DNA of 64,000 nt from Pseudomonas citri (GCF_025336485.1 NZ_JAODAB010000004.1:124001-188000), one strand, 5' to 3'. Shown: positions 21,759 to 50,364, numbered from the stretch's first letter. A program made the numbers and translations. The notes: a model not told the origin generated them from the sequence alone.

Positions 21759-23075
21759 TCACTTGCTCATCATGCTGGTCGCTTCCTGCGTGGCTTCAGT
21801 GGTTCGGGTAGCAAGTTTCCTGACTTCATCGGCCACCACCGCAAATCCGCGCCCAGCCTCGCCCGCTCGGGCTGCTTCAATAGCAGCGTTGAGTGCAAGC
21901 AAATTGGTTTGGCTGGCAATGCTCTGGATAGTGCCCACAATTTGCGTCAGCTGAGCAATGTTCTGCTCCAGCTTCTGCTGATGCTTGGCTTCGGTTTCGC
22001 GCAACTGTTCTTGTTCGTGCTGGAAATGGATGTCTACCAGCGCACCAACCGCTCGCAGTGGTGTGCCGCGCTCATCCCTACGGGTTTGGCCACGGGCGCG
22101 GAACCAGCGGAACTCACCGCTCTTGAGCTTGAGCCGATATTGAATGTCGAACGCGGTTCTGCCGGAGCGGTCATTCAAATGCTCAACTAATGCCGTCAGG
22201 CTGCGCTCCTTGTCCTCGGGGTGCAGGCGTGAAGTCCAGCTTTCGAGTACATCCGGAAACTCTTCGACTGTCTCAAAACCAAGCAGGCGGCGGAATTGCA
22301 GAGACCACCATATAGGGTTTCGTGGGTTAACCGGATCGCCAGCGATCACTTCCATGTCCCATAGACCATCGGTTAGCAACTCGCGGGAAAGCTCGAACCG
22401 GGTAAGGGTCACATCCAGCGCTCTTTCGCGTTCCCAGTCATCATGAATATCCCGTATCGATCCGGCGATCCGGATAGGCACGCCTTGCAGGTCGCGCAGC
22501 GTTTCGCCTTGTGAGAAGAACCAGCGGTACCCACCGCCCTTCAATGCCATCCGGATATTCACGCGATACGGTGTCTTCCCGGACTTATCATTCAAGTGTC
22601 GGCCAAACGCCTCAAACGCGGTTAGTCTGTCATCTGGGTGCATGCGATCAGACCAGCTGGATATGGCATTGGGAAATTCGCGCTCGTCGCTAAAACCCAG
22701 CAACTCACGCAATGTCTGTGACATCCAGCAGATGTTGTTCGGGCTCATTGGATCACCACCGACCACCTCCACGTCCCACAGACCTTCGTTGGACGCACGG
22801 TTGATAAGGTCAAAACGCTCCCTTTGGGCTTCAATCTTGTTCTCAGCCGCTGACAATAGCGCACGAGCTGCCTCAAGCTCAGCTTCCAATAAACTGACGT
22901 GTGTCATCAGTCCCTTTTCTCTACTGGCTGCGCTCTCCCATGCGCGCTTGAGTTCTTGATCCCTGGCGCTTGCGCGGAACTCGGGTTGGTCTTGCTTACC
23001 CTCTAAAGCCGCGATGAGCTGCAGGCGAGTTTTTCGATCACCGCGCAAACCTGGAAGACTGAACATTGTGGGCAT
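21759..23075 (-). CDS. Soluble chemoreceptor with two PAS domains
   Basis: A 438-aa protein without membrane segments. An N-terminal coiled coil (about 45-88) is followed by two PAS_3-type domains (about 90-205 and 215-335, each with a LLGF...FP...W..R.HP.D pattern). A shortened methyl-accepting signalling domain carries the tip [20 protein letters not shown] near 390. The signalling part is only about 90 residues, as in small cytoplasmic Aer/BdlA-like receptors. PAS domains of this class often bind FAD, haem or small ligands; the cofactor is not visible. It is the last gene of the leftward catabolic run, suggesting taxis linked to metabolism of the substrate. Confidence 0.85.
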
Positions 23076-23213
23076 GCTCTTCTTATTGGATGAGTTCTAA
23101 AGCACCTACAGGTGCTTGTGATACCGTCACAGCACATATTTTATGTATAGATACAGCCGGGATTTCGCTGAGGGCAGCTCACTATCTTCAATAATCCCTG
23201 GAACAGCAGCCGC

Positions 23214-23238
23214 GCGGGGCAGGCGCGAATGGCCCCGC
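23214..23238 (-). terminator. GC-rich hairpin after the enoyl-CoA hydratase gene
   Basis: GCGGGGC (23214-23220) and GCCCCGC (23232-23238) form a perfect 7-bp stem with an 11-nt loop just past the enoyl-CoA hydratase stop. There is no T-run. It may end or attenuate the operon before the PAS chemoreceptor. Confidence 0.35.
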
Positions 23239-23241
23239 TCA

Positions 23242-23991
23242 CTAGTCACCGCCCATAAACGCGCGAAGAGCGCGTTGTGCTTCACTCGCGCGAAGACAGT
23301 CCATGAATTGATCGACTTCGCTGTCGATGACCTTGGCAAGGGGCTGTCCCGGGTTCAATTTCATCATCGCTTTGGTCTGCTGTAATGCGAGTGGCGGTTT
23401 TCCAGCCAACAACTCTGCCATTGCCCAGCTTCGAACAATCAGTTGTTCCGTCGACAAAACGGCATTAACAATCCCCAATCGCTCGGCACTCGCAGCATCG
23501 AAGCCGCTTCCGGTCATCAGCAGCTCCGATGCGCGCCGATGGCCCAACATCAAGGGGAGCAGCGCGCTGCTCCCGCCTTCGGGTACCAGGCCAAGGTCCA
23601 CGAATGGAAGTCGGAAACGCGCGTCGGTTGCTGCGTAAACAAAATCAAAATGGAGTAGCATCGTTACCCCAATGCCTACTGCAATCCCATTCACTGCTGC
23701 TACCACCGGCTTTCTCTGACGATTCAACTGCTGCAAGAAAAGGCGTGCAGGGCTATCCAAAGCCCCATGCCGCGCCGCCGCCAAAAAATCTCCAATATCG
23801 TTGCCAGCGCAAAAACTGTCACCGGTGCCGGTAATATGAATGACTGCGACTGTATCGTCCTTATCACCCTGCACGAATAGACGGGTCAACGCTTCGTACA
23901 TTGCCGTACTAAGAGCGTTCTTTTTTCCCGCTCGATTGAGGGTGATCGAAAGTATTGTTCCAATGCATTCGCTTTGAATAAGCTCGTCCAT
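23242..23991 (-). CDS. Enoyl-CoA hydratase/isomerase family protein
   Basis: A 249-aa crotonase-fold enzyme. The oxyanion-hole segments are SFCAGNDIGDF (near 60) and AVNGIAVGIG (near 100-108). The two glutamates that catalyse hydration in rat enoyl-CoA hydratase are absent: T110 and F130 stand at those positions. A glutamate is present in GLVPEGGSS (E138), the arrangement of delta3,delta2-enoyl-CoA isomerases such as yeast Eci1. I therefore favour a double-bond isomerase in beta-oxidation of an unsaturated acyl-CoA. It follows the thiolase gene in the same direction (gap 106 bp). Confidence 0.85.
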   Translation of the reverse strand: MDELIQSECIGTILSITLNRAGKKNALSTAMYEALTRLFVQGDKDDTVAVIHITGTGDSFCAGNDIGDFLAAARHGALDSPARLFLQQLNRQRKPVVAAVNGIAVGIGVTMLLHFDFVYAATDARFRLPFVDLGLVPEGGSSALLPLMLGHRRASELLMTGSGFDAASAERLGIVNAVLSTEQLIVRSWAMAELLAGKPPLALQQTKAMMKLNPGQPLAKVIDSEVDQFMDCLRASEAQRALRAFMGGD

Positions 23992-24097: not shown

Positions 24098-25282
24098 TTA
24101 GAGACGCTCAAACAGCGCGGCAATGCCTTGTCCACCACCGATACAAAGGCTAACCACCGCGAAGCGCCCCTTAATGCGCGCCAACTCGTGCAATGCCTTC
24201 ACGGTAATTACCGCACCCGTGGCACCGATAGGATGACCAAGCGAGATGCCGCTGCCGTTGGGGTTGAGTTTGTCACCGGGAATACCCAACTCTTTTGCCA
24301 CCGCCAATGCCTGGGCGGCAAACGCCTCATTGACTTCCCATAGATCGATATCGCTCACCACTAGGTTGGCGTTCTCCAGCAACTGCCGGATAGCCGGCAC
24401 CGGTCCAATACCCATGTATTTAGGATCCACTCCCGCAAAGCTATAACCCACCAATCTGGCCATGGGCTTAAGCCCCCGTGCCTCAGCCTCCCCCCGCTCC
24501 ATCAACACCAGCGCCGCAGCCGCATCGTTGAGGCCGGAGGCGTTACCGGCAGTGACTGTTCCATCCCGTTTGAATACCGGCTTGAGCGCAGCCATATCTT
24601 CAACCGTACAGTTATGGCGAACATGTTCATCCGTATCGAACAGCGTTACCCCTTTGCGGGACTTCAATTCGACTGGCACGATCTGCTCTTTGAAAAAGCC
24701 TTGCTCGATGGCGCGCTGGGCGCGATTGTGGCTTTCGTACGCTGCTTGATCCTGTTCCTGGCGGCTGATGGTCCACTTTTGCGCAATGTTTTCTGCAGTC
24801 ATCCCCATATGCACATTTTCGAACGGGCAGTGCAGCACTCCCACCATGGCATCTACCAATTGACCATTACCCATTCGGTAACCAAAACGGGCGTTGGGTA
24901 CCCAGTAAGGCACGCGACTCATATTCTCCGCACCACCCGCCACCGCAACGCTACAAACGCCGGTCTCTATCTGCTGGGCAGCGGTAATCACCGCCTGCAG
25001 GCCACTGCCGCACAGGCGATTGACAGTGACAGCGGGTGTTATGTGCGCCAGTCCACCCTTAAGGGCGGCCACTCGCGCCATGTATGCATCAGAAGCCTCA
25101 GTGTAAATAACATGGCCAAATACGCAGTGCCCGACTGTTTCAGGTGCGATACCTGCACGCGCGACCGCTTCACGTACTACGAGCCCTGCGAGCTCACCAG
25201 GCGGCTCCGCTTTGAGGCTTCCACCCAATGTACCGATGGCTGTGCGTACTCCACTCAGTACCACCACCTCATGCATTTTCAT
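24098..25282 (-). CDS. Acetyl-CoA C-acyltransferase (thiolase)
   Basis: A 394-aa thiolase of the usual length. It cleaves 3-ketoacyl-CoA with CoA to give acetyl-CoA (or propionyl-CoA) plus a shortened acyl-CoA. Catalytic residues are visible: C91 in NRLCGSGLQ, H350 in SLGHPIGATG and C380 in LCIGGGQG. The start at 25282 has GAGGAA 7 nt upstream. Biosynthetic (acetoacetyl-CoA, BktB-like) and degradative forms are hard to separate by eye; the context of acyl-CoA synthetase, ACADs and enoyl-CoA enzyme favours degradation. A fragment of a second thiolase is at 55969-56091. Confidence 0.88.
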   Translation of the reverse strand: MKMHEVVVLSGVRTAIGTLGGSLKAEPPGELAGLVVREAVARAGIAPETVGHCVFGHVIYTEASDAYMARVAALKGGLAHITPAVTVNRLCGSGLQAVITAAQQIETGVCSVAVAGGAENMSRVPYWVPNARFGYRMGNGQLVDAMVGVLHCPFENVHMGMTAENIAQKWTISRQEQDQAAYESHNRAQRAIEQGFFKEQIVPVELKSRKGVTLFDTDEHVRHNCTVEDMAALKPVFKRDGTVTAGNASGLNDAAAALVLMERGEAEARGLKPMARLVGYSFAGVDPKYMGIGPVPAIRQLLENANLVVSDIDLWEVNEAFAAQALAVAKELGIPGDKLNPNGSGISLGHPIGATGAVITVKALHELARIKGRFAVVSLCIGGGQGIAALFERL

Positions 25283-25416: not shown

Positions 25417-26823
25417 TCAGAAGTTCAATAATTTCAGCACTGCATCAACGCTGTCCTTGGCATCCCCGAATAGCATGCGTGTGTTATTTTTATAGAACAG
25501 TGGATTATCGACGCCAGCGTAGCCGGAGCTCATGCCACGCTTGAGCACGATCGTGTTTTTTCCTTTCCAAGGCTCCAGCACCGGCATTCCGGCGATGGGA
25601 CTATCAGCCTCTTCTTGCGCCGCCGGGTTAACGATATCGTTGGCACCGATCACGATCGAGACATCCACGTTGGGGAAGTCTTCGTTGATCTCATCCATTT
25701 CGTAGACTATGTCGTAGGGCACCTTGGCTTCTGCGAGTAGAACGTTCATGTGGCCCGGCATGCGGCCGGCCACGGGGTGAATACCAAAGCGCACCTTGAC
25801 GCCATTCTCACGTAATTTCTTGGCAATTTCGTACACGCTATGCTGCGCTTGGGCAACTGCCATACCATAGCCCGGCAAGATCATCACATTCTTGGCGCCG
25901 CCCAACAGATCGGCCGTCTCTTGGGCATCGATTGCCTGAACCTCGCCGGCTACGCCTGCCGGACTTGCCGAGCCAACGCCCTTGCTTGAGCCGGCACCGA
26001 AGCCACCGAGGATGACGTTGATGAACTTGCGATTCATCGCCTTGCACATGATGTAGCTGAGAATGGCACCGCTTGAGCCCACCAGGGCGCCGACCACAAT
26101 CAGCAAATCATTGCCGAGCATGAAGCCCATAGCTGCCGCGGCCCAGCCGGAATAGCTGTTGAGCATCGATACCACCACCGGCATGTCAGCGCCGCCGATC
26201 GCAACGACCATATGTACACCGAATACCAGCGCGACCAGGGTCATCAGCACCAACCAGACTAAACCATCGCCCGCGACTGAGCCTTCGATGAAGAACATCC
26301 CGAACAGGATCGCCAACACGGCCATGCCCGCATTGAATAGATGACGGCCCGGAAGCTGCAGCGGCTTGCCACTGATTCTGGCGCTGAGCTTAAGGTAGGC
26401 GGCGACAGAACCGGAGAAAGTCACTGCACCGATCAGAATGCCTATATAGGTCTCGACATCATGGATGGTCTTCTCGACATTGTTAATGACACTGCCATGG
26501 TCCATTGCGTTGGCATACCCGACCAAAACCGCTGCCAAGCCGACCAGGCTATGAAGGATCGCAACCAACTCCGGCATCTGAGTCATTTCGACTTTTTTTG
26601 CCAAATACCAGCCGATACCCCCGCCTGCGACCATGCCGGCGATCAGGAAGTATTGGTTATGGGCCACCAAGCCGAAGACGGTGACTGCTATCGCCAGACC
26701 CGTACCCAACATCCCGTAAAGGTTGCCCCGACGCGCACTTTCCTGATGGCGCAGACCGCCCAGGGCCAGGATAAAGAGTGCGCTGGCACCAATGTATGAA
26801 GCTGTGATGACACCTGTATTCAT
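25417..26823 (-). CDS. pntB: NAD(P) transhydrogenase subunit beta
   Basis: A 468-aa membrane protein close in length to E. coli PntB (462). The first ~270 residues contain a series of membrane helices. The C-terminal NADP-binding domain III shows [34 protein letters not shown] and [10 protein letters not shown]. With PntA it couples proton entry to hydride transfer from NADH to NADP, making NADPH. pntA precedes it with an 11-bp gap. Placement in a catabolic operon suggests NADPH supply for the flavin monooxygenase. Confidence 0.95.
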
Positions 26824-26834: not shown

Positions 26835-28412
26835 TTATTTGCGGAACATCCGCAGCATTCGCTGGGTAACGGCGAAGCCACCGACGATATTGATGCTGGT
26901 GAGAAATACGGCCAACGCCGCAAGTATCACCACCGGCTGACTGTTACTGGATATCTGGATTAGCGCGCCGATGACGATGATGCTACTGATCGCGTTGGTG
27001 AGGCTCATCAGGGGTGTGTGCAGCGAATGGGATACACCCCAGATCACCATGTAACCGACAAAGCAGGACAGCATGAACACTGTCAGGTGGGCCATGAACG
27101 CCGGCGGTGCCACTGAGCCAAGACCTAACAGCGCAATGCCTGCCAGTGCTAGCGGCGCAAGAAATGTCAGCGGACTTGCCGGCTTGGGTTCGGCTTTTTG
27201 CAGTACTGCGTTGGCCTTATTGTCCGTATCAACCTTGGGGGCGACCGACAGGCGCGGTGCGGGCGGTGGCCAGGTCACTAGACCTTCCTTGACTACCGTT
27301 GCACCCCGGATCACTTCGTCATTCATATTGACGAAAATCTCACCGTTCTTCTCAGGGCACAGCTCCGTCAGCAAGTGGCGCAGGTTGGTGGCATACAACT
27401 GGCTGGACTGCGCTGCCAAGCGGCTGGGTAGATTGGTGTAACCGATCAAGGTGACGCCGTGCCTTACAACCACCTCGTTGGCGACCGTCAGTTTGCAGTT
27501 ACCACCTGCCTCCGCCGCCAGATCGACGATGACACTACCCCGCTTCATGCTGGAAACCATTTCCTCGGTGATCAACTCAGGGGCAGGTTTTCCCGGGATC
27601 AGGGCGGTGGTGATGATGATGTCGACATCCTTGGCCTGCTCAGCGAACAACTCCATTTCAGCTTTGATGAATTCTGGGCTCATGGTCTTGGCGTAACCGC
27701 CTTGGCCGCTGCCGTCCTCACCCTCGAAATTGAGCATCAAGAACTCGCCGTCCATGCTCTCGACTTGTTCTTTGACCTCGGGACGAGTGTCGAACGCACG
27801 CACAATGGCGCCCATACTTTTGGCCGTGCCGATGGCGGCCAAACCCGCGACACCGGCACCGATCACCAGCACCTTGGCCGGCGGGATCTTGCCGGCGGCA
27901 GTGATCTGGCCGGTGAAAAAGCGACCGAAGTGCTGTGCTGCCTCGACTACGGCACGGTAGCCGGCGATGTTGGCCATGGAGCTCAGGGCATCCATTTTCT
28001 GAGCGCGGGAAATACGAGGTACCGAGTCCATCGACAACGCCGTGACGCCTCGACGGGACAGCTCTTTTAGCATCTCGGGGTTCTGGGCCGGATACAGGAA
28101 GCTGATCAAGGTTTGCCCCTTGCCCAGAAGCTCTACACCATAAAAACCCAATTCCGGATGCTCAATCGGTGGGCGTACCTTCATGACGATATCGGATGTG
28201 CGCCATAGCTCTTTCGGATCTTCGATAATGTCCACGCCCGCTTCACGAAACTGATCATCGTCGAAATTGGCCAGTGCACCGGCGCCGGTTTCAATGGCCA
28301 AACTGAAGCCTAGCGCCTTCAACTGTCTGGCGACTTCCGGGGTCAGTGCTACGCGCGCTTCCCCTTCGTCTATCTCCTTCGGAACACCTATTCGCATCGG
28401 ATTCAAATTCAT
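26835..28412 (-). CDS. pntA: NAD(P) transhydrogenase subunit alpha, single-chain form
   Basis: A 525-aa protein with the NAD-binding domain I (about 1-380; [19 protein letters not shown] start and [18 protein letters not shown]ossmann loop). Four membrane helices at the C-terminus end [11 protein letters not shown], as in E. coli PntA. Many Pseudomonas genomes carry this subunit as two genes (PntAA and PntAB); here it is fused, as in enterobacteria. GGAGAG precedes the start at 28412. It forms the transhydrogenase with PntB. Whether another chromosomal pnt set exists cannot be seen. Confidence 0.95.
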
Positions 28413-28570: not shown

Positions 28571-29698
28571 CTAAAAATGAAAACTGTATCCAACTGATGC
28601 CACGATCAAATCCGTATCGATCTTATTGCCCGCACTCACTCCAGTTCCAACCGCGGGCGAGTCAAAAGTGTATTCCACGCCAAATGTTAATTCGTCACCA
28701 TCGGAAAAGGTTTTCGTCGCCCCGATGGAGGCTGCTTTCGAATTGATCGCAACCAACATAAGATTCCTTACCGTATCGTCAGAATCAAATGTACGATTCG
28801 CGTAACTTACACCGGCACGAACTGCCCAGCTGTCATTCACCGCATAGTTAAGCCCGATCCTCCGAACTTTCTGATCGTTCCATCCAAACAGGGGGGCAAA
28901 CTGCGTCCCCCCCCAGCGAATTCGAAGAAAATCGGCAGCCAGCGTGAGCTTAGGGGTTAAGTTAACAGCAACGCCAATCCCATATTGCTCCGGCACATCC
29001 AACGCGCCGTTAGTGCCGGCGAGAGCTTGTTCGCCGTAACCATCGAAGGAACCCATTTTGATTTTTGAGCCATACATGGCGCCGAACGACCAGATATCAT
29101 TGGCTCGCCACAGGACCCCAGTGCGCCAGCCAAGTCCCGTTGCGAATTCGTACCCGTCGTGTGTCACTCCTGGAAAATTTTCGAGATTAATGGCCGAGAC
29201 TGCTGGAGCAAGAGAGAAACCAATTGCCAAATCCGGAGTGGGTTTATAGGTGACTGTCGGCAATATAATTTGTGTGATGACAGTTCCCTTCGTTCCGTCG
29301 CTTCCGCCGGTAGCAATATTGTTGTCATACTCAAAACCGGCGCCATTGGAGGCGTTTGAAAGACCTATCGTCCACTGTTCATTGAGAACATGGTTGTAAC
29401 CAATCTCCGGGGTAAAACTGACGCCCGCACCATGGTTTGTCATCGGTCCACTACGACTGTCCGTATGATCCCAAAGCGCTTGCGTACCAAGATAAAGTTG
29501 GTCCCCGACATAAGCCATCCCGGCGGGGTTATTCGCCGCGGCCATGGCATCCTGTGGAAAAGCGATAGAGGCGCCCCCCATTCCTTGGGCCTTACTTCCA
29601 TAACCGGTCAATTGCAATCCGTTCACTGCACTAGCTTCACCGCCCAGAATAGGCAGCAGAACCGCCGCGCAACTTGTGGCCAGGTACTTAACTTTCAT
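28571..29698 (-). CDS. FadL/TodX-type outer-membrane transport protein
   Basis: A 375-aa protein with a signal peptide (cleavage near GGEASA). The FadL-family hatch motif at the mature N-terminus is NGLQLTGYGSKAQGMGGASI with DAMAAANNPAGMA. The C-terminus ends VGYSFHF, an outer-membrane barrel signature. Family members import long-chain fatty acids or hydrophobic aromatics across the outer membrane. It is a little shorter than E. coli FadL (446). GAGGGTG precedes the start. It lies between acyl-CoA synthetase and pntA on the same strand with gaps of about 150 bp, so it may have its own promoter. It is the likely entry point for the cluster substrate. Confidence 0.85.
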   Translation of the reverse strand: MKVKYLATSCAAVLLPILGGEASAVNGLQLTGYGSKAQGMGGASIAFPQDAMAAANNPAGMAYVGDQLYLGTQALWDHTDSRSGPMTNHGAGVSFTPEIGYNHVLNEQWTIGLSNASNGAGFEYDNNIATGGSDGTKGTVITQIILPTVTYKPTPDLAIGFSLAPAVSAINLENFPGVTHDGYEFATGLGWRTGVLWRANDIWSFGAMYGSKIKMGSFDGYGEQALAGTNGALDVPEQYGIGVAVNLTPKLTLAADFLRIRWGGTQFAPLFGWNDQKVRRIGLNYAVNDSWAVRAGVSYANRTFDSDDTVRNLMLVAINSKAASIGATKTFSDGDELTFGVEYTFDSPAVGTGVSAGNKIDTDLIVASVGYSFHF

Positions 29699-31499: not shown

Positions 31500-31676
31500 A
31501 GCTTTCACTCCTTGGAGCAATGCTCATGATCGCTTTGTAACCTGCAACCCGATCAGTGTTGGAAGCCTCACATTGCCGATGTCCCGGCCCGCAGCCGAAA
31601 CAGGGGAAATGCTGCTCCACAGTGAGTCACCGCTTGAGAATGGACTCAGGCATATCGAACGGGCGCTCTATGTTGA

Positions 31677-36220: not shown

Positions 36221-36236
36221 TGCCTAACGTTAGCAC
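36221..36236. promoter_or_regulatory. LacI-type operator O1 (monooxygenase side)
   Basis: TGCCTAACGTTAGCAC: the right half GTTAGCAC is perfect and the left half matches GTGCTAAC at its inner five positions. The central CG with flanking AA/TT is typical of LacI/GalR family operators. It lies in the divergent promoter region upstream of the monooxygenase operon. Confidence 0.65.
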
Positions 36237-36338: not shown

Positions 36339-36354
36339 GCTATAACGTTAGCAC
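36339..36354. promoter_or_regulatory. LacI-type operator O2 (acyl-CoA dehydrogenase side)
   Basis: GCTATAACGTTAGCAC: the right half is perfect and the left half partial. TATAAC inside it could be a -10 box for the rightward acyl-CoA dehydrogenase gene, so a bound repressor would block RNA polymerase. No good -35 is seen. The rest of 36097-36494 is AT-rich non-coding DNA. Confidence 0.65.
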
Positions 36355-41922: not shown

Positions 41923-44900
41923 AGGCTCTCCTTGCATTCCAGGACGGTGTTCTTCGGAGCCTCGCCCTGGGAGAGCACATTGCGAAGCCTCTCCCGAAGC
42001 GTCACACGTTCACCAGCAATCTTGTTGGCGTGGTCGGCGCGCACATGCCCATAGCCACGAATTTTCTCAGGCAGTGAAGCCAGGGCTAACGCATCAGCAA
42101 TGCCTTGTTGCCTACCCGTGCACTCATTAATCAGAACCAAATCCTCCTCATAGTTCTTGAGAAGCTCGCGCGCCAATTTGCTTTCCGCGTTGTAGCGGAA
42201 CGGATCAATCAGCGTTCCGCGAATGGCTCGAATCGATTTAAGAGCCCGCATGATCGGGAACACCCAGGAACCTACTTCGCATTTTTGTAGGTTTCCCGTG
42301 ACGGGGTCCCTCTTTGAAAACGGCCACGCCCCAAGGTTTAGGTGCAGCCGGTAGTCACCTTCAAATTGGCTCTCGACCTCTTCGCGAAACGCGGGGGAAG
42401 AGTAAATCCGCGCCACCTCATACTCGTCCTTGTGCGCTAGCAACTTGTAGTAATACCGCGCTACGGCACTGGCCAAAGCGCCCTCGGCCCCCATTTCAGC
42501 ATCTTTGTCCTGTGCACGTTTCACAGCGCTCGTATATCGCTTGGCTAAAGCCTTCCCCTGATATGCGATGAGACGCGAGCTGCGATCTTCAACGATGTCA
42601 TTCACGCCAGGATTGGGCTCAATGATCCGCACAACACTTTCATTGCCCGACCTGGCTTGGCTCATCCACTCGCGGCGAACAGCCTCTGGATCGACAGCCA
42701 TGCGACGTCCCCATTCAAAACTCTGAATGTTGAAATCCACCTTCACTCCGTTGAGCTCAATCGAATGATGAAGCGACTTGAGGCCGACAGGGACACGCCC
42801 CTGCTGCCAAGCAAAGCCCAGCATGAACATGTTCACTGCGAGGGTATCGCCCATCAGGCCTGTCGCTATGTGGCTGGCCTCAAGTGTGTGAATCTTCCCT
42901 CCAGTCGTCACGCTTAAGCGCTCTATTAGCCCCTCGGCATTGGCCTTCCAGTCAGGTCGTTTAGGGAAGTCCGAAGTTGGCGCTATAACAGAATTGATGA
43001 CGGCATGGCTCCGGCTGAGGCTTAGCTTGCTGACCGCCTCTTCACCGGAAGCCACAATCAGGTCACAACCGATGACAAGATCTGCCTCGCCCAAACCTAA
43101 CCGGGAGCTTCGCAGCGTCTCGCCTGCTGGAGCAAAACGCAGATGAGACATCACAGCACCGTATTTCTGAGCGATGCCCGTCACATCAAGCACACTACTT
43201 TCACGCCCCTCAAGGGTTGCAGCCATATTCAGGATTGCCCCGATGGTTACAATACCTGTGCCTCCAATACCGGCAACGAGCACCCCATATCCGCCCTTGG
43301 TATCGGGCAGAATCGGCTCCGGCAAATCGCCCCATCTGTCTGAGGCATTCGCGCTGACACCTACCTGGCGTTTAAGCTTTCCGCCGCGGACAGTCACGAA
43401 ACTTGGGCAGAATCCCTCAACACAGGTGAGATCCTTGTTGCAGCTCGACTGATTGATTTTTCGCTTGCGGCCCAATTCTGTTTCGAGCGGCTCAATCGAC
43501 ATACAGTTGGATTTTCGACCACAATCGCCGCAGCCCTCGCACACCTCGGCATTGATCAAAACACGCCTCGCCACATCGATTGCAGGGTTGCGTTTGCGTT
43601 GGCGCCGTAGCTCAGTGGCGCAGGCCTGGTCGTAAATCAGCACCGACACGCCCTCAAACTCACGGAGCTCTCGCTGCACCGCATCCAGATCATTGCGAGG
43701 GCGCAAATCGACGCCTGGCGCCAGACTGACTCCGTGATAGCGCGTCACGTCATCGGTTACGAGCACGATCCGCTCCACCCCCTCGGCGCGGACCAGATCA
43801 ATTGCACGCGGGACCGTTAGCTCACCGTCCACGAGCTGCCCGCCGGTCATCGAGACATATCCGTTATAAAGCAGTTTGTACGTCACTCTCACTCGGGCGG
43901 CGACTGCCTGTCGAATCGCCATGCTTCCAGAATGAAAAAAAGTGCCATCCCCGAGATTCACAAAAACGTGCTTTTCGGTGGTGAAACGTGATTGCCCAAC
44001 CCAGAACATTCCTTCAGCACCCATGTGGGTCACAGTGCCAGTGGTCTCGGGCCGGATCCACATAGCCATGCCATGGCAACCGATCCCAGCCATCGTTCGA
44101 CTGCCATCAGGCACCACAGTGGATCGATTGTGCGGACAGCCCGAACAAAAATTCGGAGTGCGCAACAGCGCCGGCACATCGAGTGAAAGCCCGCCACCCT
44201 CCTCGTCAGATGCAAGAGCCTTCAGACCAACCAGCCCTGCGATGGTGCGGGAAATGATTTTGGGAGAAAGCTCTCCCGACATTGGCAATAAAGGCACACC
44301 TTCAGACGTATGGCTTGCACCAGACGGATCCGCCTTACCCCAAACCTTCACATGCTGCCCTCCCGCTTGCAGGATGGCGCGAACTTGCTCCTCAACAAAG
44401 GGCCGTTTTTCTTCGACGATCAATACACAGTCCAGATCTTTCACAAACGCTTCAACGATTTGCGGATCGATCGGATAAGTCATGCCCAGCTTTAGAAGGC
44501 GTATACCCTCATTCGTGGCGACTTCATCGGTCAGCCCCAGATCGCTCATAGCGCTGCGCGTATCAGTCCAACTTTTTCCTGCAGAAACGATACCCAACCT
44601 GGGTCTGATTGGAGTCAGCATAATTCGATTGAGCCCATTGGCCCGCGCATAAGCGATGGCAGCAGGAACTCGATGCTCATAAAGCCGCGCTTCCATTTCA
44701 AGCGGCGGCTCGTTGGCAAGAATATGCACCCCCTTCGGCGCCAGTGTGGGCATGGCGGGGAGTACGGGACGTGCGCGATTCGGGCCGACTTCGACGGTCG
44801 AGGTTGTTTCCACGACATCCGTAACCAGTTTGATCGCGACCCAAAGACCTGCATATCGGCTCATGGCGATGCCGTGCAGACCGTAATCCAAAATTTCCTG

Positions 44901-45659: not shown

Positions 45660-46835
45660 TCAAAGCAACTGGCGAGCCTCTAGCCACCTACGGACAATGT
45701 TTGTCGCCTCGGCGATCTGCTCAGGCTGATTTGCGTAGTAATGCGTTGCCCCTTTGATGACATGCATTTCTTTGTCCTGAGAGCCAGCCGCTTCAAAAAT
45801 TCGCCTGGAATCGGGCTGAGGAACACCATCATCAGCGCTCCCTTCGATCACAAGAAGCGGAGAGGTCATCGCGGCGGCGCATACAAAACCATTGGCGCGG
45901 GAATCCTCTGGAGACCATTGCGAAAGCCAGGCACGCAATGTCGAGAACCGTGCCAAACCAATCGGTCCGGAATTTACGGTTTCAGGATCTCCTAGAAGTC
46001 TCCCGCCCGGCGCACGGTCATTGGGATCGAGCGTCGGGTCCAGGAAGCGAAGATCAGCCCAGGTGCGATGCACAACGAACCCTCGCTCAAGCTCGCCGGT
46101 GCCGCGGGACTTAAGTTCCTCGAGCGTGTCTTTCACCCAGTCTGTGATCCTGCGAAGACGAGCCCGTTGAGCGGCACGATAACGAGCGACATATTCGGAC
46201 GCATATGGCGGCTGGTTCGGGTTTCGCGGGTCGTAGATATCGAGCTCCACATCCCGATCATCCGGATTCGCCTCATCACGCACGGAGGGATCAATCACCT
46301 CGGCAAGATTCAAGGCTCGCCCTGCGTGTGCAGACTGAAAAACCACGGCGTCTGCGGGTATCAGCCCAGCCCCTGCGATATCGACAGGGTCACCCGCCGG
46401 GGTATCGATGATCGTAGGTGTCTCAGCCTGCGACTGGTAAAACAGCGATAGTGATCCACCACCACTCCAACCCAGGAGGACGATTTTCTCGTAACCCCAC
46501 GACTCCTTTGCGTGGCGAATGTAAGCACCGAGATCAAGAACAACTTTCTCCATGATGAGCGCTGTATCGTTCTTGGGATAACGACTGCCCGCGCATAGAA
46601 CATGCAACCCTGACCGCGCAAAGGCCTGAGGCACAGGAAGCAAATGCAGTGTGGAGCTGGGGTGCATCAAAATAATGAGGGTCTTGGAAGACCCTTTAGT
46701 TGGGCGCAGAAGCATGCCCTCTAAATTGACCTTGCCCTGTGTGCCCGAGTAACCATAAGTTTCGGCGAAACGTGAACGCTCCTCGTAAGTTATATGTACC
46801 CATTCACAAGAAAAGACGTGATCTTGGCTTGCCAT
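45660..46835 (-). CDS. Alpha/beta hydrolase
   Basis: A 391-aa hydrolase-fold protein. The nucleophile elbow is LLGWSGGGSLSL (Ser near 124), the acid is in VIEGSADDGVPQPDS and the His in IKGATHYYANQ near the C-terminus, so the triad is complete. A long insertion (~150-290) forms a lid. There is no signal peptide. It could hydrolyse an ester, lactone or C-C bond in a ring-cleavage product. AAGGAGAGG precedes the start, 13 bp after the VOC gene. About 220 bp separate it from the oxidoreductase, with no gene in the gap. Confidence 0.85.
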   Translation of the reverse strand: MASQDHVFSCEWVHITYEERSRFAETYGYSGTQGKVNLEGMLLRPTKGSSKTLIILMHPSSTLHLLPVPQAFARSGLHVLCAGSRYPKNDTALIMEKVVLDLGAYIRHAKESWGYEKIVLLGWSGGGSLSLFYQSQAETPTIIDTPAGDPVDIAGAGLIPADAVVFQSAHAGRALNLAEVIDPSVRDEANPDDRDVELDIYDPRNPNQPPYASEYVARYRAAQRARLRRITDWVKDTLEELKSRGTGELERGFVVHRTWADLRFLDPTLDPNDRAPGGRLLGDPETVNSGPIGLARFSTLRAWLSQWSPEDSRANGFVCAAAMTSPLLVIEGSADDGVPQPDSRRIFEAAGSQDKEMHVIKGATHYYANQPEQIAEATNIVRRWLEARQLL

Positions 46836-46848: not shown

Positions 46849-47418
46849 TTAACCCTTCAGCGCTGTGGCAGGCTGCGCCTTTATTTTGTTCCAAGCCTTC
46901 AAAGACTTATGAGCATCGCGCTTGTGATGTTCCCACGCCTCGGCATTCTCCTCAGAGTAAGTAATAAACTCTAAGCGATAGCCATTCGGGTCATGAAAAT
47001 ACAGCGATGTGCAGACTCCGTGATCAACCGGGCCGTCGCATTTCACTCCACGCTCTTGCAGGCGATCCTGCCATTCATGAATGGCCTCGATACTTTTTAC
47101 TTTGATGGCGAAATGCAGGTCCATGCCCCATTGGCGCTTGAATTCAAAGACTGAACCATCAGGAACATCCGCCACGTCAAAAAATGCCAAGTAGGACGAC
47201 TCGCCGGGGACATTGGTCCCGATGTCGAAGAACAAGTGCAAATAGCGCATCTCCTCCCCTGTAGTCGGGTGCCGTTCGTTGATCATGGCAACCTCAAGCG
47301 GGAAGCCGAGCACACCTTCGTAAAAGTCACATGTCTCTTGCGCGTCCCTGCATCGATACGCAGCGTGATCCAACCCGAAGATTTGCGGCAATTCGGGATT
47401 GCGCGGACATCTAGTCAT
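46849..47418 (-). CDS. VOC superfamily protein (glyoxalase/extradiol-dioxygenase-like)
   Basis: A 189-aa protein with two beta-alpha-beta modules of the vicinal-oxygen-chelate fold. The first starts GLDHAAYRCRDAQETCDFYE and the second ends SLYFHDPNGYRLEFITYSEE. His20-like, His in LHFAIKV and Glu in RLEFI are at metal-ligand positions, so it is probably a metal enzyme. It might be a single-domain extradiol dioxygenase, a glyoxalase or an epimerase. I chose ATG 47418; GTG 47421 is adjacent, and AGGAG lies upstream of both. It is the first gene of the leftward operon, and operator O3 is 64-79 bp upstream. Confidence 0.85.
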   Translation of the reverse strand: MTRCPRNPELPQIFGLDHAAYRCRDAQETCDFYEGVLGFPLEVAMINERHPTTGEEMRYLHLFFDIGTNVPGESSYLAFFDVADVPDGSVFEFKRQWGMDLHFAIKVKSIEAIHEWQDRLQERGVKCDGPVDHGVCTSLYFHDPNGYRLEFITYSEENAEAWEHHKRDAHKSLKAWNKIKAQPATALKG

Positions 47419-47481
47419 CACTTGTCTCCTGTCGATTTGCGCTTGAGCAAGCGCATGGGTGACCTGTAAACCTTCAGCACA

Positions 47482-47497
47482 GTGCTAACGTTAGTTT
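47482..47497. promoter_or_regulatory. LacI-type operator O3 (VOC operon side)
   Basis: GTGCTAACGTTAGTTT: the left half GTGCTAAC is perfect and the right half partial. On the minus strand TATAAA lies just upstream and may be the -10 box of the VOC operon. The site would then overlap the transcription start. Confidence 0.65.
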
Positions 47498-47616: not shown

Positions 47617-47645
47617 TTGAGCATCCTAAAATCGTGTGTTATAAC
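47617..47645 (+). promoter_or_regulatory. Sigma-70 promoter of the lyase operon
   Basis: TTGAGC (47617-47622), a 17-bp spacer, then TATAAC (47640-47645), ending 63 bp before the lyase ATG. The -10 box is inside operator O4, a usual repression geometry. Confidence 0.55.
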
Positions 47646-47653
47646 GATTGCAC
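47638..47653. promoter_or_regulatory. LacI-type operator O4 (lyase operon side)
   Basis: GTTATAACGATTGCAC matches GTGCTAACGTTAGCAC at 12 of 16 positions and overlaps the predicted -10 box. It is the weakest of the four sites, but its position mirrors O2. Confidence 0.5.
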
Positions 47654-47708: not shown

Positions 47709-48599
47709 ATGGCAAAGCGTCAAACCTTCAGTCAGCTAGTCGCCACAGGAGCGCCGCTGGTCATGCCCTGCGCTCACGATGCGCTCACTGCGCGACTGAT
47801 CGAACAGGCTGGTTTCCCAGCATTCGCGATCAGCGGCTCTGGCGCACTCGCTGCTCGCTTTGCACTTCCCGACCTGGGAATAGCGGGTCTTGCAGACGTT
47901 TGCGATGTAACTCGCAACATTCTCGATGCCACATCAATACCCTGCATGGTCGACGGCGATGACGGCTACGGCGACGTGAAATCCGTCGCGCGGACCGTTC
48001 GTGCAAATGAGGCCCTCGGTGTCAGTGCGCTCGTACTTGAAGATCAAAAACGTGCGTTTAAACGTCCCGGCCAGAGTGCTGCCGTCGGCGTGGTGCATGA
48101 CGAAGAAATCGCGGCAAAACTGAAGGTGGCCCTCGATACTCGTGATAGCAAAGATATGTGGATCATCGGGCGCACCGACGCCTATGGCGCACAAAGTTTA
48201 GATGCCGCAATCCGCCGTGCGGAGCTGTATTTGAAGAGCGGTGTGGATGGTTTGTTTCTCGCAGGCGTACGCAAGCCCGAAGAGCTTGAACGTATCGGAG
48301 AGGTGTTCCGTGGCACGCCGCTTATCGCCGTTGTTTATGGAGGAAAAGACTGGTCGGCACTGACTGTCAGTGAACTCCATGGTATGGGCTATACACAGAT
48401 CTTGTATCCGCTTGCACTGCTGTTGCCAATGTGCACGTTGTTTGACGACGCACTCCAGGCGCTTCGCTTGAGCGCTATAAACGGCACGCCACCACCTGTG
48501 CTGGAGGATGAAAAACGCGCTCGCGCCCTTCTCGCCAGCGCCGTTAAAGCCGAGGAATGGCTATCACTTGAAAAGGTCACTGGAGGTATCACCGAATGA
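47709..48599 (+). CDS. Isocitrate lyase/PEP mutase family enzyme
   Basis: A 296-aa protein of the isocitrate-lyase superfamily. It has the Mg-binding MVDGDDGYGDVKS near 80, VSALVLEDQ near 110 and IIGRTDAYGAQSLD near 155. The K-[KR]-C-G-H catalytic loop of true isocitrate and methylisocitrate lyases is not seen (here KRAFKRPGQ), so a C-C lyase such as 2,3-dimethylmalate lyase, or an oxaloacetate-decarboxylase-like enzyme, is more likely. AGAGGTGA precedes the start. It is first in a three-gene rightward operon, coupled to the next gene by a 4-bp overlap. Confidence 0.88.
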   Translation: MAKRQTFSQLVATGAPLVMPCAHDALTARLIEQAGFPAFAISGSGALAARFALPDLGIAGLADVCDVTRNILDATSIPCMVDGDDGYGDVKSVARTVRANEALGVSALVLEDQKRAFKRPGQSAAVGVVHDEEIAAKLKVALDTRDSKDMWIIGRTDAYGAQSLDAAIRRAELYLKSGVDGLFLAGVRKPEELERIGEVFRGTPLIAVVYGGKDWSALTVSELHGMGYTQILYPLALLLPMCTLFDDALQALRLSAINGTPPPVLEDEKRARALLASAVKAEEWLSLEKVTGGITE

Positions 48600-49564
48600 A
48601 AGGGCTCATCGTTGATGATAGTACGCCGGATAAACCCCGGCTCATGTTGGCGCATATACCAAAACCCAAAATCAGCGAAAGCGAACTCCTTATTCGCGTT
48701 AGGGTTTCAGGCCTTAATCGCTCAGATCTGGGGCTGACCCCCGATCACTACGCACCTAACACGGTCGTCGGCACCGAACTGGCTGGAGAAGTCGTCGAAG
48801 TGGGTGCTAGTTGCAGCGGTTTTTCTGAGGGGGACCGAGTCATGGCGCTTTCAAGCGGGTCCCACGCTGAGTTTGCCAAGGTCGACCATAGAATCGCAGT
48901 AAAACTGCCGGATGATATTGACTGGCAGACTGCCGCCTCGTTACCCGCATGGTTCATGACGGCATATGACGCGTTGATCACGCAGGGTAAATTGCGCGCG
49001 GGAGAGACGGTACTCATCCAGGGGATCACCTCAGGGGTGGGTCAAGCTGCTGCGCAACTAGCCAAGTTAAACGGCGCGAAAACCGTTATTGGCGTCGCAC
49101 GCTCGCAAGACAAACTGGATCAGTTAACGAGCGAGGAAGTGGATCAGACCTTTGCCATGAAGGACGGCTGGGCCGAAGCTGTGCGCGAGGCCACAGGCGG
49201 ACAAGGTGTAGATCTCATAATCGACATGGTTGGCGGCGGGGCTTTGAACGGCAACCTTCAGGCTCTCGCCATTTGCGGCCGTATGGTTGCAGTAGGCCGC
49301 CTGGGCGGTGCAAGCGACACGCTGGATATCGGCATGCTTGCTTTCAAGCGCGCACAGATTACCGGAGTGACATTTCGGTCTCGGAATATTGAAGAAAAAG
49401 CCGCCATCGCCAGAGCTTTTGCCTCGCACATTATCCCCCTCGTCGTTGCGGGCAAACTCAAACCACGTATAGACCGTATAGCTCAACTTGCCGAAGCAGG
49501 CGCCGCACAGGAGCTGATGCGGGACAACAAACACTTCGGAAAAATATTGTTGGCAATCGTATGA
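48596..49564 (+). CDS. Quinone-oxidoreductase-like medium-chain reductase
   Basis: A 322-aa zinc-free medium-chain reductase. The GroES-like N-terminal domain (about 1-120; VSGLNRSDLGL, VGTELAGEVVEVG) is followed by the NADPH fold (GITSGVGQAAAQLAKLNGA near 140). Family members reduce quinones, enones or enoyl groups with NADPH. Start and stop overlap neighbours by 4 bp on both sides, so translation is coupled. The substrate is unknown; reduction of an unsaturated intermediate fits the cluster. Confidence 0.85.
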   Translation: MKGLIVDDSTPDKPRLMLAHIPKPKISESELLIRVRVSGLNRSDLGLTPDHYAPNTVVGTELAGEVVEVGASCSGFSEGDRVMALSSGSHAEFAKVDHRIAVKLPDDIDWQTAASLPAWFMTAYDALITQGKLRAGETVLIQGITSGVGQAAAQLAKLNGAKTVIGVARSQDKLDQLTSEEVDQTFAMKDGWAEAVREATGGQGVDLIIDMVGGGALNGNLQALAICGRMVAVGRLGGASDTLDIGMLAFKRAQITGVTFRSRNIEEKAAIARAFASHIIPLVVAGKLKPRIDRIAQLAEAGAAQELMRDNKHFGKILLAIV

Positions 49565-50364
49565 GCTCACCATTCAGCAAGACAGAAACGCTTTCGATGA
49601 CGCATAGCGGGGCACACCAACGCCTTTCGGGGAGACGCATTGTTATCACAGGCGGCGGAACCGGAATTGGTCGTGCGATAGCCGAGCGGTGCAGTTTGGA
49701 AGGCGCAATCGTCTCGGTCATTGGCCGACGGCAAGCACCACTATCTCAGGTGCAGGCAGTTACGGGCGGCTATTCCGCATGCGCCGATCTACGCGACGAG
49801 GATGCAACCAAGCGCGCCGTCTACGAATGTGCCGCATCCATGGGCGGTCTTGACGGACTGGTGAATGCGGTGGGGGTCCTTGACGTCTGCACCCTGGAGG
49901 AGTGCAACCTGGATCGCTGGAATCAAAGCATCTTGGCTAATCTGACGGCCCCGTTTTTGGCCTGTCGGGCAGCACTTCCATTTTTGCGCGAGGCAGCAGG
50001 AAATGGAAAGAGCGCGGCCATCGTCAACATCGCGGCGCTCGCAGCGATAATGCCAGGTGTCAGTAGCGCAGGTTATTCCGCCGCCAAGGCAGGCTTAGTG
50101 CAATACAGCCGAACCATTGCCAAAGAATTGGGGCCGGATATTCGGGTAAATAGTGTCTGCCCCGGTGCAGTCGAAACCCCCATGACCGATGGCTTCCTTT
50201 CCAGAGAAGGAGTGAACCGGGAAGGCTTCATTTCCCGTTACACGCTAGGTCGCTTGTCCCAAGCGGCAGAAGTGGCCAACGTTGTCGTCTTCCTTTTAAG
50301 CAACGAAGCCTCATGCGTTATTGGCAGCAACTTTATCGTGGACGGAGGGCGCGCTTTCCAGTAG
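49561..50364 (+). CDS. Short-chain dehydrogenase/reductase
   Basis: A 267-aa SDR with ITGGGTGIGRAIAERC near 30-45, VNAVGVLD near 102, the catalytic segment GYSAAKAGLVQYSRTIAKEL (Tyr and Lys) and IRVNSVCPGAVETPMTDG. The first ATG overlaps the previous stop (ATGA); an internal ATG at 49597 would remove 12 unconserved residues. It is last in the lyase operon and ends just before a hairpin terminator. It probably interconverts a hydroxyl and a keto group of a pathway intermediate. Confidence 0.87.
   Translation: MSSPFSKTETLSMTHSGAHQRLSGRRIVITGGGTGIGRAIAERCSLEGAIVSVIGRRQAPLSQVQAVTGGYSACADLRDEDATKRAVYECAASMGGLDGLVNAVGVLDVCTLEECNLDRWNQSILANLTAPFLACRAALPFLREAAGNGKSAAIVNIAALAAIMPGVSSAGYSAAKAGLVQYSRTIAKELGPDIRVNSVCPGAVETPMTDGFLSREGVNREGFISRYTLGRLSQAAEVANVVVFLLSNEASCVIGSNFIVDGGRAFQ

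What the first reader, a model, noticed from the sequence alone, without database searches (positions are those of the whole stretch)
21759..50364. A possibly undescribed acyl-CoA-dependent catabolic system
About 20 genes combine a ring monooxygenase, alpha/beta hydrolase, VOC enzyme, single-chain 2-oxoacid ferredoxin oxidoreductase, two unlike ACADs, a phosphotransferase, four SDR/MDR-type redox partners per arm, an ICL-fold lyase, PntAB, a FadL porin and a soluble chemoreceptor. I do not recognise this set as any named pathway (not benzoate, phenylacetate paa, camphor, atu/liu or steroid kst). The shared operator makes it one functional unit.
Basis: inference. Interest (0 to 1): 0.75.

Follow-up and report, generated by a model that had tools for sequence, protein, structure and literature searches.

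The report
Ring catabolism feeding a levulinate-type pathway
A bacterium, likely a Pseudomonas, carries 22 neighbouring enzyme, transport and sensing genes around two regions that share a repeated DNA motif; the set is predicted to break open a plant-type aromatic such as coumarin and would then likely burn the leftover chain by the phosphate-tagging route known for levulinic acid, a pairing that our searches did not find described.

Summary
The gene inventory is real: 22 genes (21759-50364) plus a LacI-type regulator (50407-51459). Four of the window's five copies of TAACGNTNGCA sit in the two divergent promoter regions (0.33 expected in the window; 0 of 100 shuffles reach 5). 'No named pathway' is half right: ACAD401, the SDR and the acyl-CoA synthetase match LvaC, LvaD and LvaE of the levulinate pathway (69, 59, 54% identity to a plasmid lva operon). 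The kinase is ACAD10/11-like, not LvaA-like, and LvaB was not found. ACAD401 has the HCMR motif and catalytic Asp that handle 4-phosphoacyl-CoA. The front end looks aromatic. The VOC protein's nearest solved relative is a VOC-fold homogentisate 1,2-dioxygenase (9u42), with three aligned metal-type residues kept. An MDR-cupin pair also sits beside mhp genes on Pseudomonas plasmid pSTY and beside gentisate genes in Variovorax, and resembles hcdE-hcdF of 7-hydroxycoumarin degradation. Best reading: a 3-(hydroxyphenyl)propanoate, likely from a coumarin, is ring-cleaved to a 4-oxo acid (levulinate) and burned through kinase/ACAD chemistry. Substrate and hydrolase cut are inferred; IOR, ICL-fold, DUF1993 and the 598-aa ACAD are unassigned. 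New variant of known kinds; no activity was measured.

The parts
21759..23075 (-). PAS-type methyl-accepting chemotaxis protein (MCP), end of operon A
   Evidence: Pfam PAS_3 (two stretches) and MCPsignal
23242..23991 (-). enoyl-CoA hydratase (ECH)
   Evidence: ECH_1; best NCBIfam PRK06023, below its cut-off
24098..25282 (-). BktB-type beta-ketothiolase
   Evidence: PRK09051 above cut-off (634 over 565), BktB equivalog model below its cut-off (635 under 725); 61% identical to the thiolase beside lva-type genes of Massilia
25417..26823 (-). PntB transhydrogenase beta
   Evidence: PRK09444, 675.6 bits against cut-off 689
26835..28412 (-). PntA transhydrogenase alpha
   Evidence: PRK09424 and TIGR00561 above cut-off
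28571..29698 (-). FadL/TodX-type porin
   Evidence: Toluene_X PF03349 above cut-off
29853..31520 (-). acyl-CoA synthetase, LvaE-like
   Evidence: PRK08162 above cut-off; 54% to the synthetase of the plasmid lva operon L039
31677..32219 (-). cupin protein paired with MDR1 (compare hcdF)
   Evidence: Cupin_2; adjacent pair conserved in Variovorax and pSTY
32240..33352 (-). zinc-type MDR (MDR1; compare hcdE)
   Evidence: ADH_N/ADH_zinc_N; 63% Variovorax, 55% pSTY, 54% and 48% Rhodococcus opacus
33518..34426 (-). SDR, PRK08278 type; overlaps FMO gene
   Evidence: PRK08278 above cut-off; 62% to the SDR next to an FMO in Bradyrhizobium
34396..36096 (-). flavin aromatic-ring monooxygenase (FMO), first gene of operon A
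   Evidence: PRK06126 above cut-off, FAD_binding_3 and Rng_hyd_C; RebC, dichlorophenol and hydroxybiphenyl monooxygenase PDB matches
36225..36235 (+). operator-like site 1
   Evidence: TAACGTTAGCA
36343..36353 (+). operator-like site 2
   Evidence: TAACGTTAGCA
36495..38291 (+). 598-aa acyl-CoA dehydrogenase with PF12806 C-terminal domain
38382..39410 (-). APH-type kinase, predicted 4-hydroxyacyl-CoA kinase (LvaA role)
   Evidence: ACAD11 kinase domain, 246 bits over residues 10-335; HGD and DWE motifs
39407..40177 (-). SDR, LvaD-like
   Evidence: 59% to the SDR of lva operon L039, 71% in L037 and L038
40174..41379 (-). acyl-CoA dehydrogenase, LvaC-like (ACAD401)
   Evidence: 69% to the lvaC position of L039; HCMR motif and Asp kept
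41404..41937 (-). DUF1993 protein, role unknown
   Evidence: PF09351
41919..45515 (-). single-chain indolepyruvate-type 2-oxoacid:ferredoxin oxidoreductase (IOR)
   Evidence: PRK13030 and PRK13029 above cut-off
45660..46835 (-). alpha/beta hydrolase (ABH), predicted ring-fission product hydrolase
   Evidence: VOC within 2 kb in 17 of 29 loci
46849..47421 (-). one-domain VOC protein, predicted ring-cleaving dioxygenase, first gene of operon C
   Evidence: nearest PDB sequence 9u42, VOC-fold homogentisate 1,2-dioxygenase; H19, H103, E151 kept in 17 of 17
47483..47493 (-). operator-like site 3
   Evidence: TAACGTTAGCA
47642..47652 (+). operator-like site 4
   Evidence: TAACGATTGCA
47709..48599 (+). 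ICL/PEP-mutase-fold lyase, substrate unknown
   Evidence: PF13714; methylisocitrate-lyase-like, below cut-off
48596..49564 (+). MDR, PIG3-type quinone oxidoreductase-like (MDR2)
   Evidence: TIGR02824 265.8 bits, below cut-off
49561..50364 (+). SDR (SDR231)
   Evidence: PRK07231 below cut-off; 52% to an SDR in the Bradyrhizobium cluster
50407..51459 (-). LacI-family regulator, presumed reader of the operator
   Evidence: PF00356, Peripla_BP_3

Best explanation
The block likely encodes a catabolic pathway that is predicted to open the ring of a 3-(hydroxyphenyl)propanoate, likely made from a coumarin-type lactone, and would feed the side-chain fragment, likely levulinate or another 4-oxo acid, into a kinase/acyl-CoA-dehydrogenase route like that of the lva operon.

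Inferred steps: (1) MDR1, with the cupin, reduces the lactone double bond using NADPH kept up by PntAB, giving the 3-(hydroxyphenyl)propanoate. (2) FMO adds a hydroxyl group so that the ring becomes a hydroquinone or trihydroxybenzene. (3) VOC cleaves the ring next to the side chain as homogentisate dioxygenase does. (4) ABH hydrolyses the resulting beta-diketone; with a CH2CH2COOH side chain the methyl-ketone fragment is levulinate, where homogentisate itself gives acetoacetate. (5) The synthetase makes levulinyl-CoA. (6) The SDR at 39407 reduces it to 4-hydroxyvaleryl-CoA. (7) The kinase phosphorylates the 4-hydroxyl. (8) ACAD401 removes the phosphate to give a pentenoyl-CoA. (9) ECH and BktB give acetyl-CoA and propionyl-CoA.

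Shown here: gene content and order, motif copies, homology, conserved active-site residues. Not assigned: IOR, the ICL-fold enzyme, DUF1993, the 598-aa ACAD, MDR2 and the two other SDRs.
For: lva-like back end: ACAD401 is 69% identical to the ACAD directly after the gene annotated lvaB in a P. aeruginosa plasmid operon, the SDR 59%, the synthetase 54%. ACAD401 keeps R, HCMR and the Asp that PMC12440821 assigns to 4-phosphoacyl-CoA handling (passages). The kinase matches the ACAD11 kinase domain over nearly its whole length. BktB is 61% identical to a thiolase in a Massilia lva-type cluster.

Aromatic front end: VOC's nearest solved structure by sequence (93 bits, E 2.4e-25) is 9u42, which is also Foldseek rank 1 and is titled homogentisate 1,2-dioxygenase from Acinetobacter; the residues at H19, H103, E151 are H, H, E in 17 of 17 relatives. 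In a Rhodococcus opacus plasmid with FMO 46%, ABH 42% and two MDR1 relatives (54%, 48%), no VOC relative was found and a cupin beside ABH has hmgA as its only NCBIfam match at E 1e-8, weak at 46.6 bits.

Substrate class: the MDR1-cupin pair stands next to mhpB, a BphD-like hydrolase, mhpD, mhpE, mhpT and an FMO on pSTY of Pseudomonas sp. VLB120, and beside salicylyl-CoA-5-hydroxylase-like and gentisate dioxygenase genes in Variovorax. In P. mandelii 7HK4 the MDR HcdE reduces 7-hydroxycoumarin with NADPH only and lies in a putative operon with the cupin HcdF; HcdA is an FMO, HcdB an extradiol dioxygenase (PMC6222606, PMC7913881; passages and one section).

Unity: motif copies in both divergent regions; 4-base overlaps ACAD401-SDR-kinase.
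Against: The ABH model resembles esterases and lipases, not a C-C hydrolase in particular. The VOC model superposes poorly on 9u42 (TM 0.41/0.46, rmsd 16), and the next fold matches are methylmalonyl-CoA epimerases, then extradiol dioxygenases. VOC was found within 2 kb of ABH in 17 of 29 loci, but FMO within 3 kb in only 3 of 29, and at least two of the 17 (L033, L034) lie in P450 clusters with no clear aromatic theme. IOR is in tight order with ACAD401-SDR-kinase and has no place in the scheme. The kinase is only 24% identical to the LvaA-position kinase of L039, and one query with an LvaB found nothing in the genome (no positive control). The regulator is LacI-type, not the PrpR-like one beside the plasmid lva operon.
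Confidence: 0.45

Rival explanations
1. IOR-first model: the ring-fission product is a 2-oxo acid that IOR decarboxylates straight to an acyl-CoA, as proposed for EdcC in estrogen breakdown, and thiolase and the lva-like enzymes dismantle the resulting oxo-acyl-CoA; ABH opens an ester or lactone instead of cutting a C-C bond.
For: IOR overlaps DUF1993 and lies in tight order with ACAD401-SDR-kinase. EdcC acts on a meta-cleavage product in vivo (PMC7793797, passages). A Bradyrhizobium plasmid stretch has FMO 33%, SDR 62%, IOR 43%, ICL-fold 46%, SDR 52% and an MCP, with no match to ACAD401 or the kinase. A Massilia plasmid stretch has IOR 48% about 10 kb from ACAD (31%) and kinase (33%) relatives. 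The ABH model is esterase-like.
Against: Extradiol products would give 5-oxo, not 4-oxo, acyl-CoA, so the lva-like step would not fit directly (inference). The cluster also carries an LvaE-like synthetase, which would be idle. IOR is common in the order (82 of 244 genomes), so its family says little about substrate. The annotated VOC of the Bradyrhizobium stretch did not match the window's VOC at E 1e-5.
Confidence: 0.25
2. Gamma-lactone or 4-hydroxy-acid catabolism: ABH opens a hydrophobic lactone or ester brought in by FadL, the synthetase activates the 4-hydroxy acid, and kinase plus ACAD401 pass it into beta-oxidation; FMO and VOC modify or detoxify something else.
For: FadL-type porin, a second ACAD, ECH and BktB fit fatty acids; ABH is esterase-like with a weak match to an N-acyl-homoserine lactonase model (25 bits). 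4-Hydroxy acids for ACAD10/11 assays were made by opening gamma-lactones (PMC11342911, PMC12440821, passages).
Against: Leaves VOC, FMO, IOR and the MDR1-cupin pair without a role, although the same motif stands before their operons; MDR1-cupin is tied to hydroxyphenylpropanoid-type genes elsewhere.
Confidence: 0.15
3. A chance neighbourhood of separate modules (levulinate module, aromatic module, PntAB and so on) with no common substrate.
For: The modules occur apart elsewhere: lva-like genes without these ring genes in Comamonas, Azoarcus and Massilia stretches; VOC-ABH without ACAD401-type genes at LvaC-level identity in the other loci compared.
Against: Shared motif at both divergent regions; contig-length coincidences in the homologue lists suggest that FMO, ABH and ICL-fold travel together in other genomes.
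Confidence: 0.1

Closest known systems
lva operon for levulinate (lvaABCDE; described for P. putida KT2440, here seen as a P. aeruginosa plasmid operon, L039)
   Same: LvaC-, LvaD- and LvaE-like enzymes (69, 59, 54% identity), a kinase for the 4-hydroxyl (predicted), and a BktB-type thiolase
   Different: Kinase of the ACAD10/11 type, LvaB not found, LacI instead of the PrpR-like regulator, and aromatic-type genes behind the same motif
ACAD10/ACAD11 4-hydroxy-acid route (PMC11342911, PMC12440821)
   Same: Kinase domain relative and ACAD with HCMR motif and catalytic Asp
   Different: Separate bacterial proteins; source of the 4-hydroxyacyl-CoA is proposed to be ring cleavage
hcd cluster for 7-hydroxycoumarin, P. 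mandelii 7HK4 (PMC6222606, PMC7913881)
   Same: Gene kinds: MDR plus cupin, FMO, small VOC-type dioxygenase, hydrolase
   Different: No DUF1185 or FMN-reductase gene among the cluster genes scanned; lva-like genes, IOR, PntAB added; sequence relation not tested
Homogentisate pathway (hmgA and its VOC-fold counterpart 9u42)
   Same: VOC relative of 9u42; expected beta-diketone product
   Different: A propanoate side chain would give levulinate, not acetoacetate; the genome has a separate canonical hmgA
edc estrogen cluster (PMC7793797)
   Same: VOC dioxygenase and single-chain IOR in one cluster
   Different: No P450 hydroxylase or TonB receptor among the cluster genes; lva-like genes present

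Membership tests
lva levulinate pathway | LvaC-type ACAD with motif for 4-phosphoacyl-CoA | tested here: met
   69% to L039 LvaC position; QVRLAPARLTHCMR and YDGP conserved
lva levulinate pathway | LvaD-type SDR and LvaE-type synthetase | tested here: met
   59% and 54% identity to L039; activity not tested
lva levulinate pathway | LvaA-type kinase | tested here: not met
   24% to the L039 kinase but ACAD11-like
lva levulinate pathway | LvaB partner protein | tested here: inconclusive
   One LvaB query found nothing in the genome; no positive control in that search
lva levulinate pathway | PrpR-like LvaR activator and transport genes | tested here: not met
   LacI-type regulator and FadL-type porin instead; no DUF485/acetate symporter among the cluster genes scanned
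ACAD10/11 4-hydroxy-acid route | 4-hydroxyacyl-CoA kinase and 4-phosphoacyl-CoA elimination activity | not testable with these tools
   Residues conserved; needs enzyme assay
hcd 7-hydroxycoumarin cluster | MDR ene-reductase next to a cupin gene | tested here: inconclusive
   Same gene kinds adjacent; hcd sequences not available for comparison
hcd 7-hydroxycoumarin cluster | HcdD (DUF1185) and HcdG (FMN reductase) | tested here: not met
   Not among the cluster genes scanned
VOC-fold homogentisate 1,2-dioxygenase | Metal-type residues H, H, E | tested here: met
   Aligned with 9u42; 17 of 17 relatives
VOC-fold homogentisate 1,2-dioxygenase | Ring-cleaving activity | not testable with these tools
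   Needs enzyme assay
mhp 3-(3-hydroxyphenyl)propionate pathway | mhpB, mhpD, mhpE | tested here: not met
   Absent from the cluster genes scanned; present on pSTY
edc estrogen pathway | P450 4-hydroxylase EdcA | tested here: not met
   No P450 among the cluster genes scanned

The most novel reading that the evidence does not exclude
A homogentisate-like pathway one carbon longer: ring cleavage of 3-(2,5-dihydroxyphenyl)- or 3-(2,3,5-trihydroxyphenyl)propanoate releases levulinate instead of acetoacetate, and the levulinate is burned by an ACAD10/11-type kinase and an LvaC dehydrogenase. That would give levulinate catabolism a natural, plant-aromatic source and add a further fate for coumarins.
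Probability: 0.33. Interest if true: 0.8.

Novelty: new variant of a known kind. Interest (0 to 1): 0.6.

Why it matters
Levulinate breakdown was worked out on a biomass-derived chemical; what it is for in nature is unclear to me (recalled, no call). If ring cleavage of common plant phenylpropanoids releases levulinate or another 4-oxo acid, the kinase/ACAD route shared with mammalian ACAD10/11 gains a natural role. A single expression experiment in a laboratory Pseudomonas could decide it. It would also supply enzymes from plant aromatics to levulinate, a chemical of industrial use (PMC10164729, abstract start in the listing).

Tried and rejected
Considered and set aside: estrogen edc pathway (no P450 in the cluster); plain mhp pathway (no mhpB/D/E in the cluster); plain levulinate operon (aromatic-type genes behind the same motif, LvaA-type kinase absent); fde naringenin pathway (passages of one paper read; no decisive comparison possible); zearalenone, gingerol-type, alkylresorcinol and tocopherol substrates (thought through only, no test).

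Led nowhere: ABH as a marker for the whole cluster; its relatives lie in many different clusters. The ABH structure gave only a general esterase/lipase fold. Searches of 95, 398, 399 and 296 genomes with ABH (E limits 1e-3, 1e-100, 1e-150, 1e-150) and 398 genus genomes with FMO (E 1e-70) gave no second full cluster in the stretches that I fetched; I did not fetch every match. Five relatives of FMO at 32-39% in four genus genomes had no VOC match at E 1e-4 in the stretches fetched. A plasmid DNA search with 24 kb matched only the pnt part in the 20 of 21 records listed. My ORF caller was poor in GC-rich loci; the counts that I use come from tblastn.

Contig names were not seen. For the ABH alignment and model I used 21 of the 120 listed homologues plus the window protein.

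One search took 29 of the loci then held, all chosen because they carry an ABH relative; L026 and L027 come from one genome; L072 has ABH cut at its end, and L007, L013, L074 and L078 have a flank under 3 kb on one side, so their misses are not fair ones. Paper searches: 10 of 10 used. Papers opened: PMC11342911, PMC12440821, PMC7793797, PMC6222606, PMC11303751, PMC7913881, PMC9399607; passages only, with the outline of PMC6222606 and the Discussion of PMC7913881. A Pfam scan of neighbour genes gave no lead; the Foldseek viral library was not used.

Full report
WHAT IS THERE. Searches confirm 22 genes between 21759 and 50364 and a LacI-family regulator at 50407-51459. Four transcription units diverge from two intergenic regions. 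Operon A (minus, from 36096): FMO, SDR278, MDR1, cupin, acyl-CoA synthetase, FadL-type porin, PntA, PntB, BktB-type thiolase, enoyl-CoA hydratase, chemoreceptor; seven gaps of 106-166 bases remain, so internal promoters are possible. Unit B (plus): the 598-aa ACAD. Operon C (minus, from 47421): VOC, ABH, then after 144 bases IOR, DUF1993, ACAD401, SDR, kinase, the last five overlapping or within 24 bases. Operon D (plus): ICL-fold enzyme, MDR2, SDR. The genome is 6.24 Mb; the nearest named ABH homologue is 97% identical and from Pseudomonas baetica, so the host is likely a Pseudomonas. Window GC is 51-58% in 3-kb steps with no break at the cluster.

OPERATOR. TAACGNTNGCA occurs at 36225, 36343, 47483 (minus) and 47642, all in the two divergent regions, and once at 56270, 64 bases before an amino-acid-permease ORF. 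The window has 5 copies against 0.33 expected, and none of 100 shuffles reached 5. The exact 10-mer occurs 4 times in the genome, 3 of them here; its reversed control occurs 11 times. A looser 14-mer scan was weaker: 4 of 100 shuffles reached the observed 5. That the LacI protein reads these sites is inferred from its position.

THE LEVULINATE-LIKE MODULE. In a P. aeruginosa plasmid the annotation names lvaB between a phosphotransferase and an ACAD, followed by an SDR and an acyl-CoA synthetase. Against it the window has ACAD401 69%, SDR 59%, synthetase 54%, but kinase only 24%. In Comamonas endophytica the same ACAD-SDR-kinase order has 78, 71 and 64% identity. The window kinase is closest to 3dxp (391 bits) and the ACAD11 kinase (246 bits) in the PDB. 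PMC12440821 (passages) assigns R626, H634, R637 and D753 of ACAD11 to 4-phosphoacyl-CoA handling; ACAD401 has R, HCMR and D at the aligned places. PMC11342911 (passages) reports that a bacterial kinase and ACAD, made as separate proteins, can each replace the matching ACAD10 part. One LvaB query found nothing in the genome, with no positive control. The next ACAD in the genome is 38% identical, so this block holds the only close LvaC found. The route itself (LvaE, LvaD, LvaA/B, LvaC to acetyl-CoA and propionyl-CoA) is as told in PMC9399607 (passages). BktB and ECH would fit the last steps.

THE RING SIDE. FMO scores above the PRK06126 cut-off and has the aromatic-ring hydroxylase C-terminal domain; the FMO of the pSTY mhp cluster is 30% identical and also has PRK06126 as best match, below cut-off. 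VOC has one solved relative at E 2.4e-25, 9u42; Foldseek ranks 9u42 first and gives its title as homogentisate 1,2-dioxygenase from Acinetobacter, but the superposition is poor (TM 0.41/0.46, rmsd 16). Later ranks mix methylmalonyl-CoA epimerases and extradiol dioxygenases. The model has mean pLDDT 77.6 with residues 1-19 poor, so the sequence match is the stronger support. The three aligned metal-type residues are H, H, E in 17 of 17 relatives lying within 2 kb of an ABH relative, out of 29 loci examined. FMO relatives were within 3 kb of ABH in 3 of 29; in one of these three, L012, a relative of the 598-aa ACAD (33%) is also near. In Rhodococcus opacus DSM 44186 a plasmid cluster carries FMO 46%, ABH 42%, MDR1 relatives 54% and 48%, no VOC match, and beside ABH a cupin that matches hmgA weakly (46.6 bits, cut-off 510.75).

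THE ENTRY STEP. MDR1 and the cupin are adjacent here and in Variovorax boronicumulans (63%, 56%), V. paradoxus (61%, 54%, two records, adjacency from coordinates) and Pseudomonas sp. VLB120 pSTY (55%, 39%). On pSTY they stand before mhpB (above cut-off), a BphD-like hydrolase (below cut-off), mhpD, acetaldehyde dehydrogenase, mhpE, mhpT and an FMO. In V. boronicumulans they stand with a salicylyl-CoA 5-hydroxylase-like FMO (371.5 bits over 376 residues of a longer model, below its cut-off), gentisate dioxygenase above cut-off, ligase, hydratase and an ACAD 33% identical to the window's 598-aa one. Both settings suit a 2-hydroxyphenylpropanoid such as melilotate from coumarin (inference). In P. 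mandelii 7HK4 the MDR HcdE reduces 7-hydroxycoumarin with NADPH only, in a putative operon with cupin HcdF (PMC7913881, Discussion and passages), and HcdA, HcdB and HcdC degrade 3-(2,4-dihydroxyphenyl)propanoate (PMC6222606, passages). Those authors did not identify the hydrolysis products and suggested succinate. PntAB in operon A would supply NADPH.

CHEMISTRY (inferred). Homogentisate-type cleavage next to a side chain R gives a beta-diketone that ends in CO-CH2-CO-R. Hydrolysis as in fumarylacetoacetate hydrolase releases CH3-CO-R. With R = CH2COOH this is acetoacetate; with R = CH2CH2COOH it is levulinate. For the 2,3,5-trihydroxy ring the other product is oxaloacetate, which an ICL-fold enzyme could use; 3b8i, PA4872 oxaloacetate decarboxylase, is among its PDB matches at 77 bits, well below the best at 117.

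GAPS. IOR, DUF1993, ICL-fold, the 598-aa ACAD, MDR2 and two SDRs are not assigned. The tight link of IOR with the lva-like genes is the strongest point for the IOR-first rival; a Massilia plasmid also has an IOR (48%) about 10 kb from ACAD (31%) and kinase (33%) relatives. A Bradyrhizobium guangxiense plasmid stretch with FMO 33%, SDR 62%, IOR 43%, ICL-fold 46%, SDR 52%, an MCP, a gentisate-dioxygenase-like cupin (below cut-off) and no match to ACAD401 or the kinase suggests that FMO, IOR and ICL-fold belong to ring chemistry; its annotated VOC and hydrolase did not match the window's at E 1e-5.

SPREAD. Among 95 genomes, own included, ABH was found in 9 at E 0.001, with one other of the same genus at 35%. 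In 398 genus genomes an FMO at E 1e-70 was found in 5, own included, the others at 32-39%. Homologue lists for ABH, FMO and ICL-fold share several contig lengths, which suggests that the set recurs in Bradyrhizobium, the Burkholderia cepacia complex and metagenomes; this is circumstantial.

VERDICT. A real, likely co-regulated catabolic unit with a recognisable levulinate-like back end and a likely phenylpropanoid ring-cleaving front end. The combination was not found in print in the searches made here, which cover open-licence papers only; some searches asked for it most directly.

Noticed in passing
56270-56280: A fifth copy of the operator motif lies 64 bases before an amino-acid-permease-like ORF (56344-57960, +), which could be a further member of the regulon.
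   Followed up: partly
14592-21466: An AraC-type regulator followed by two copies of a cassette of Phenol_MetA_deg porin-like protein and PRK07487-type amidase (15678-18275 and 18575-21466); a weak MetA-type relative (26%) also sits after the MDR-cupin pair on pSTY.
   Followed up: partly
53297-53923: A GST-like protein with maleylacetoacetate isomerase (maiA) as best NCBIfam match, 78 bits against a cut-off of 171, beside a PNPOx-like ORF and a LysR regulator.
   Followed up: partly
51766-52158: A limonene-epoxide-hydrolase/SnoaL-fold protein directly beyond the LacI gene.
   Followed up: no
60196-63986: A patatin-like phospholipase next to an 875-aa ATPase that matches part of the TOMM kinase/cyclase fusion model, below cut-off.
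   Followed up: no
41404-41937: DUF1993 gene overlapping IOR; DUF1993 relatives also lie about 3-5 kb from ABH relatives on Variovorax and Diaphorobacter plasmids (L032, L043).
   Followed up: partly
L037 13980-17955: In Comamonas endophytica an ORF annotated DOPA 4,5-dioxygenase family lies about 1.7 kb from the lvaC-lvaD-kinase set.
   Followed up: no
50365-50406: An inverted repeat between the convergent operon D and the LacI gene, seen by eye in the sequence, looks like a two-way terminator.
   Followed up: no
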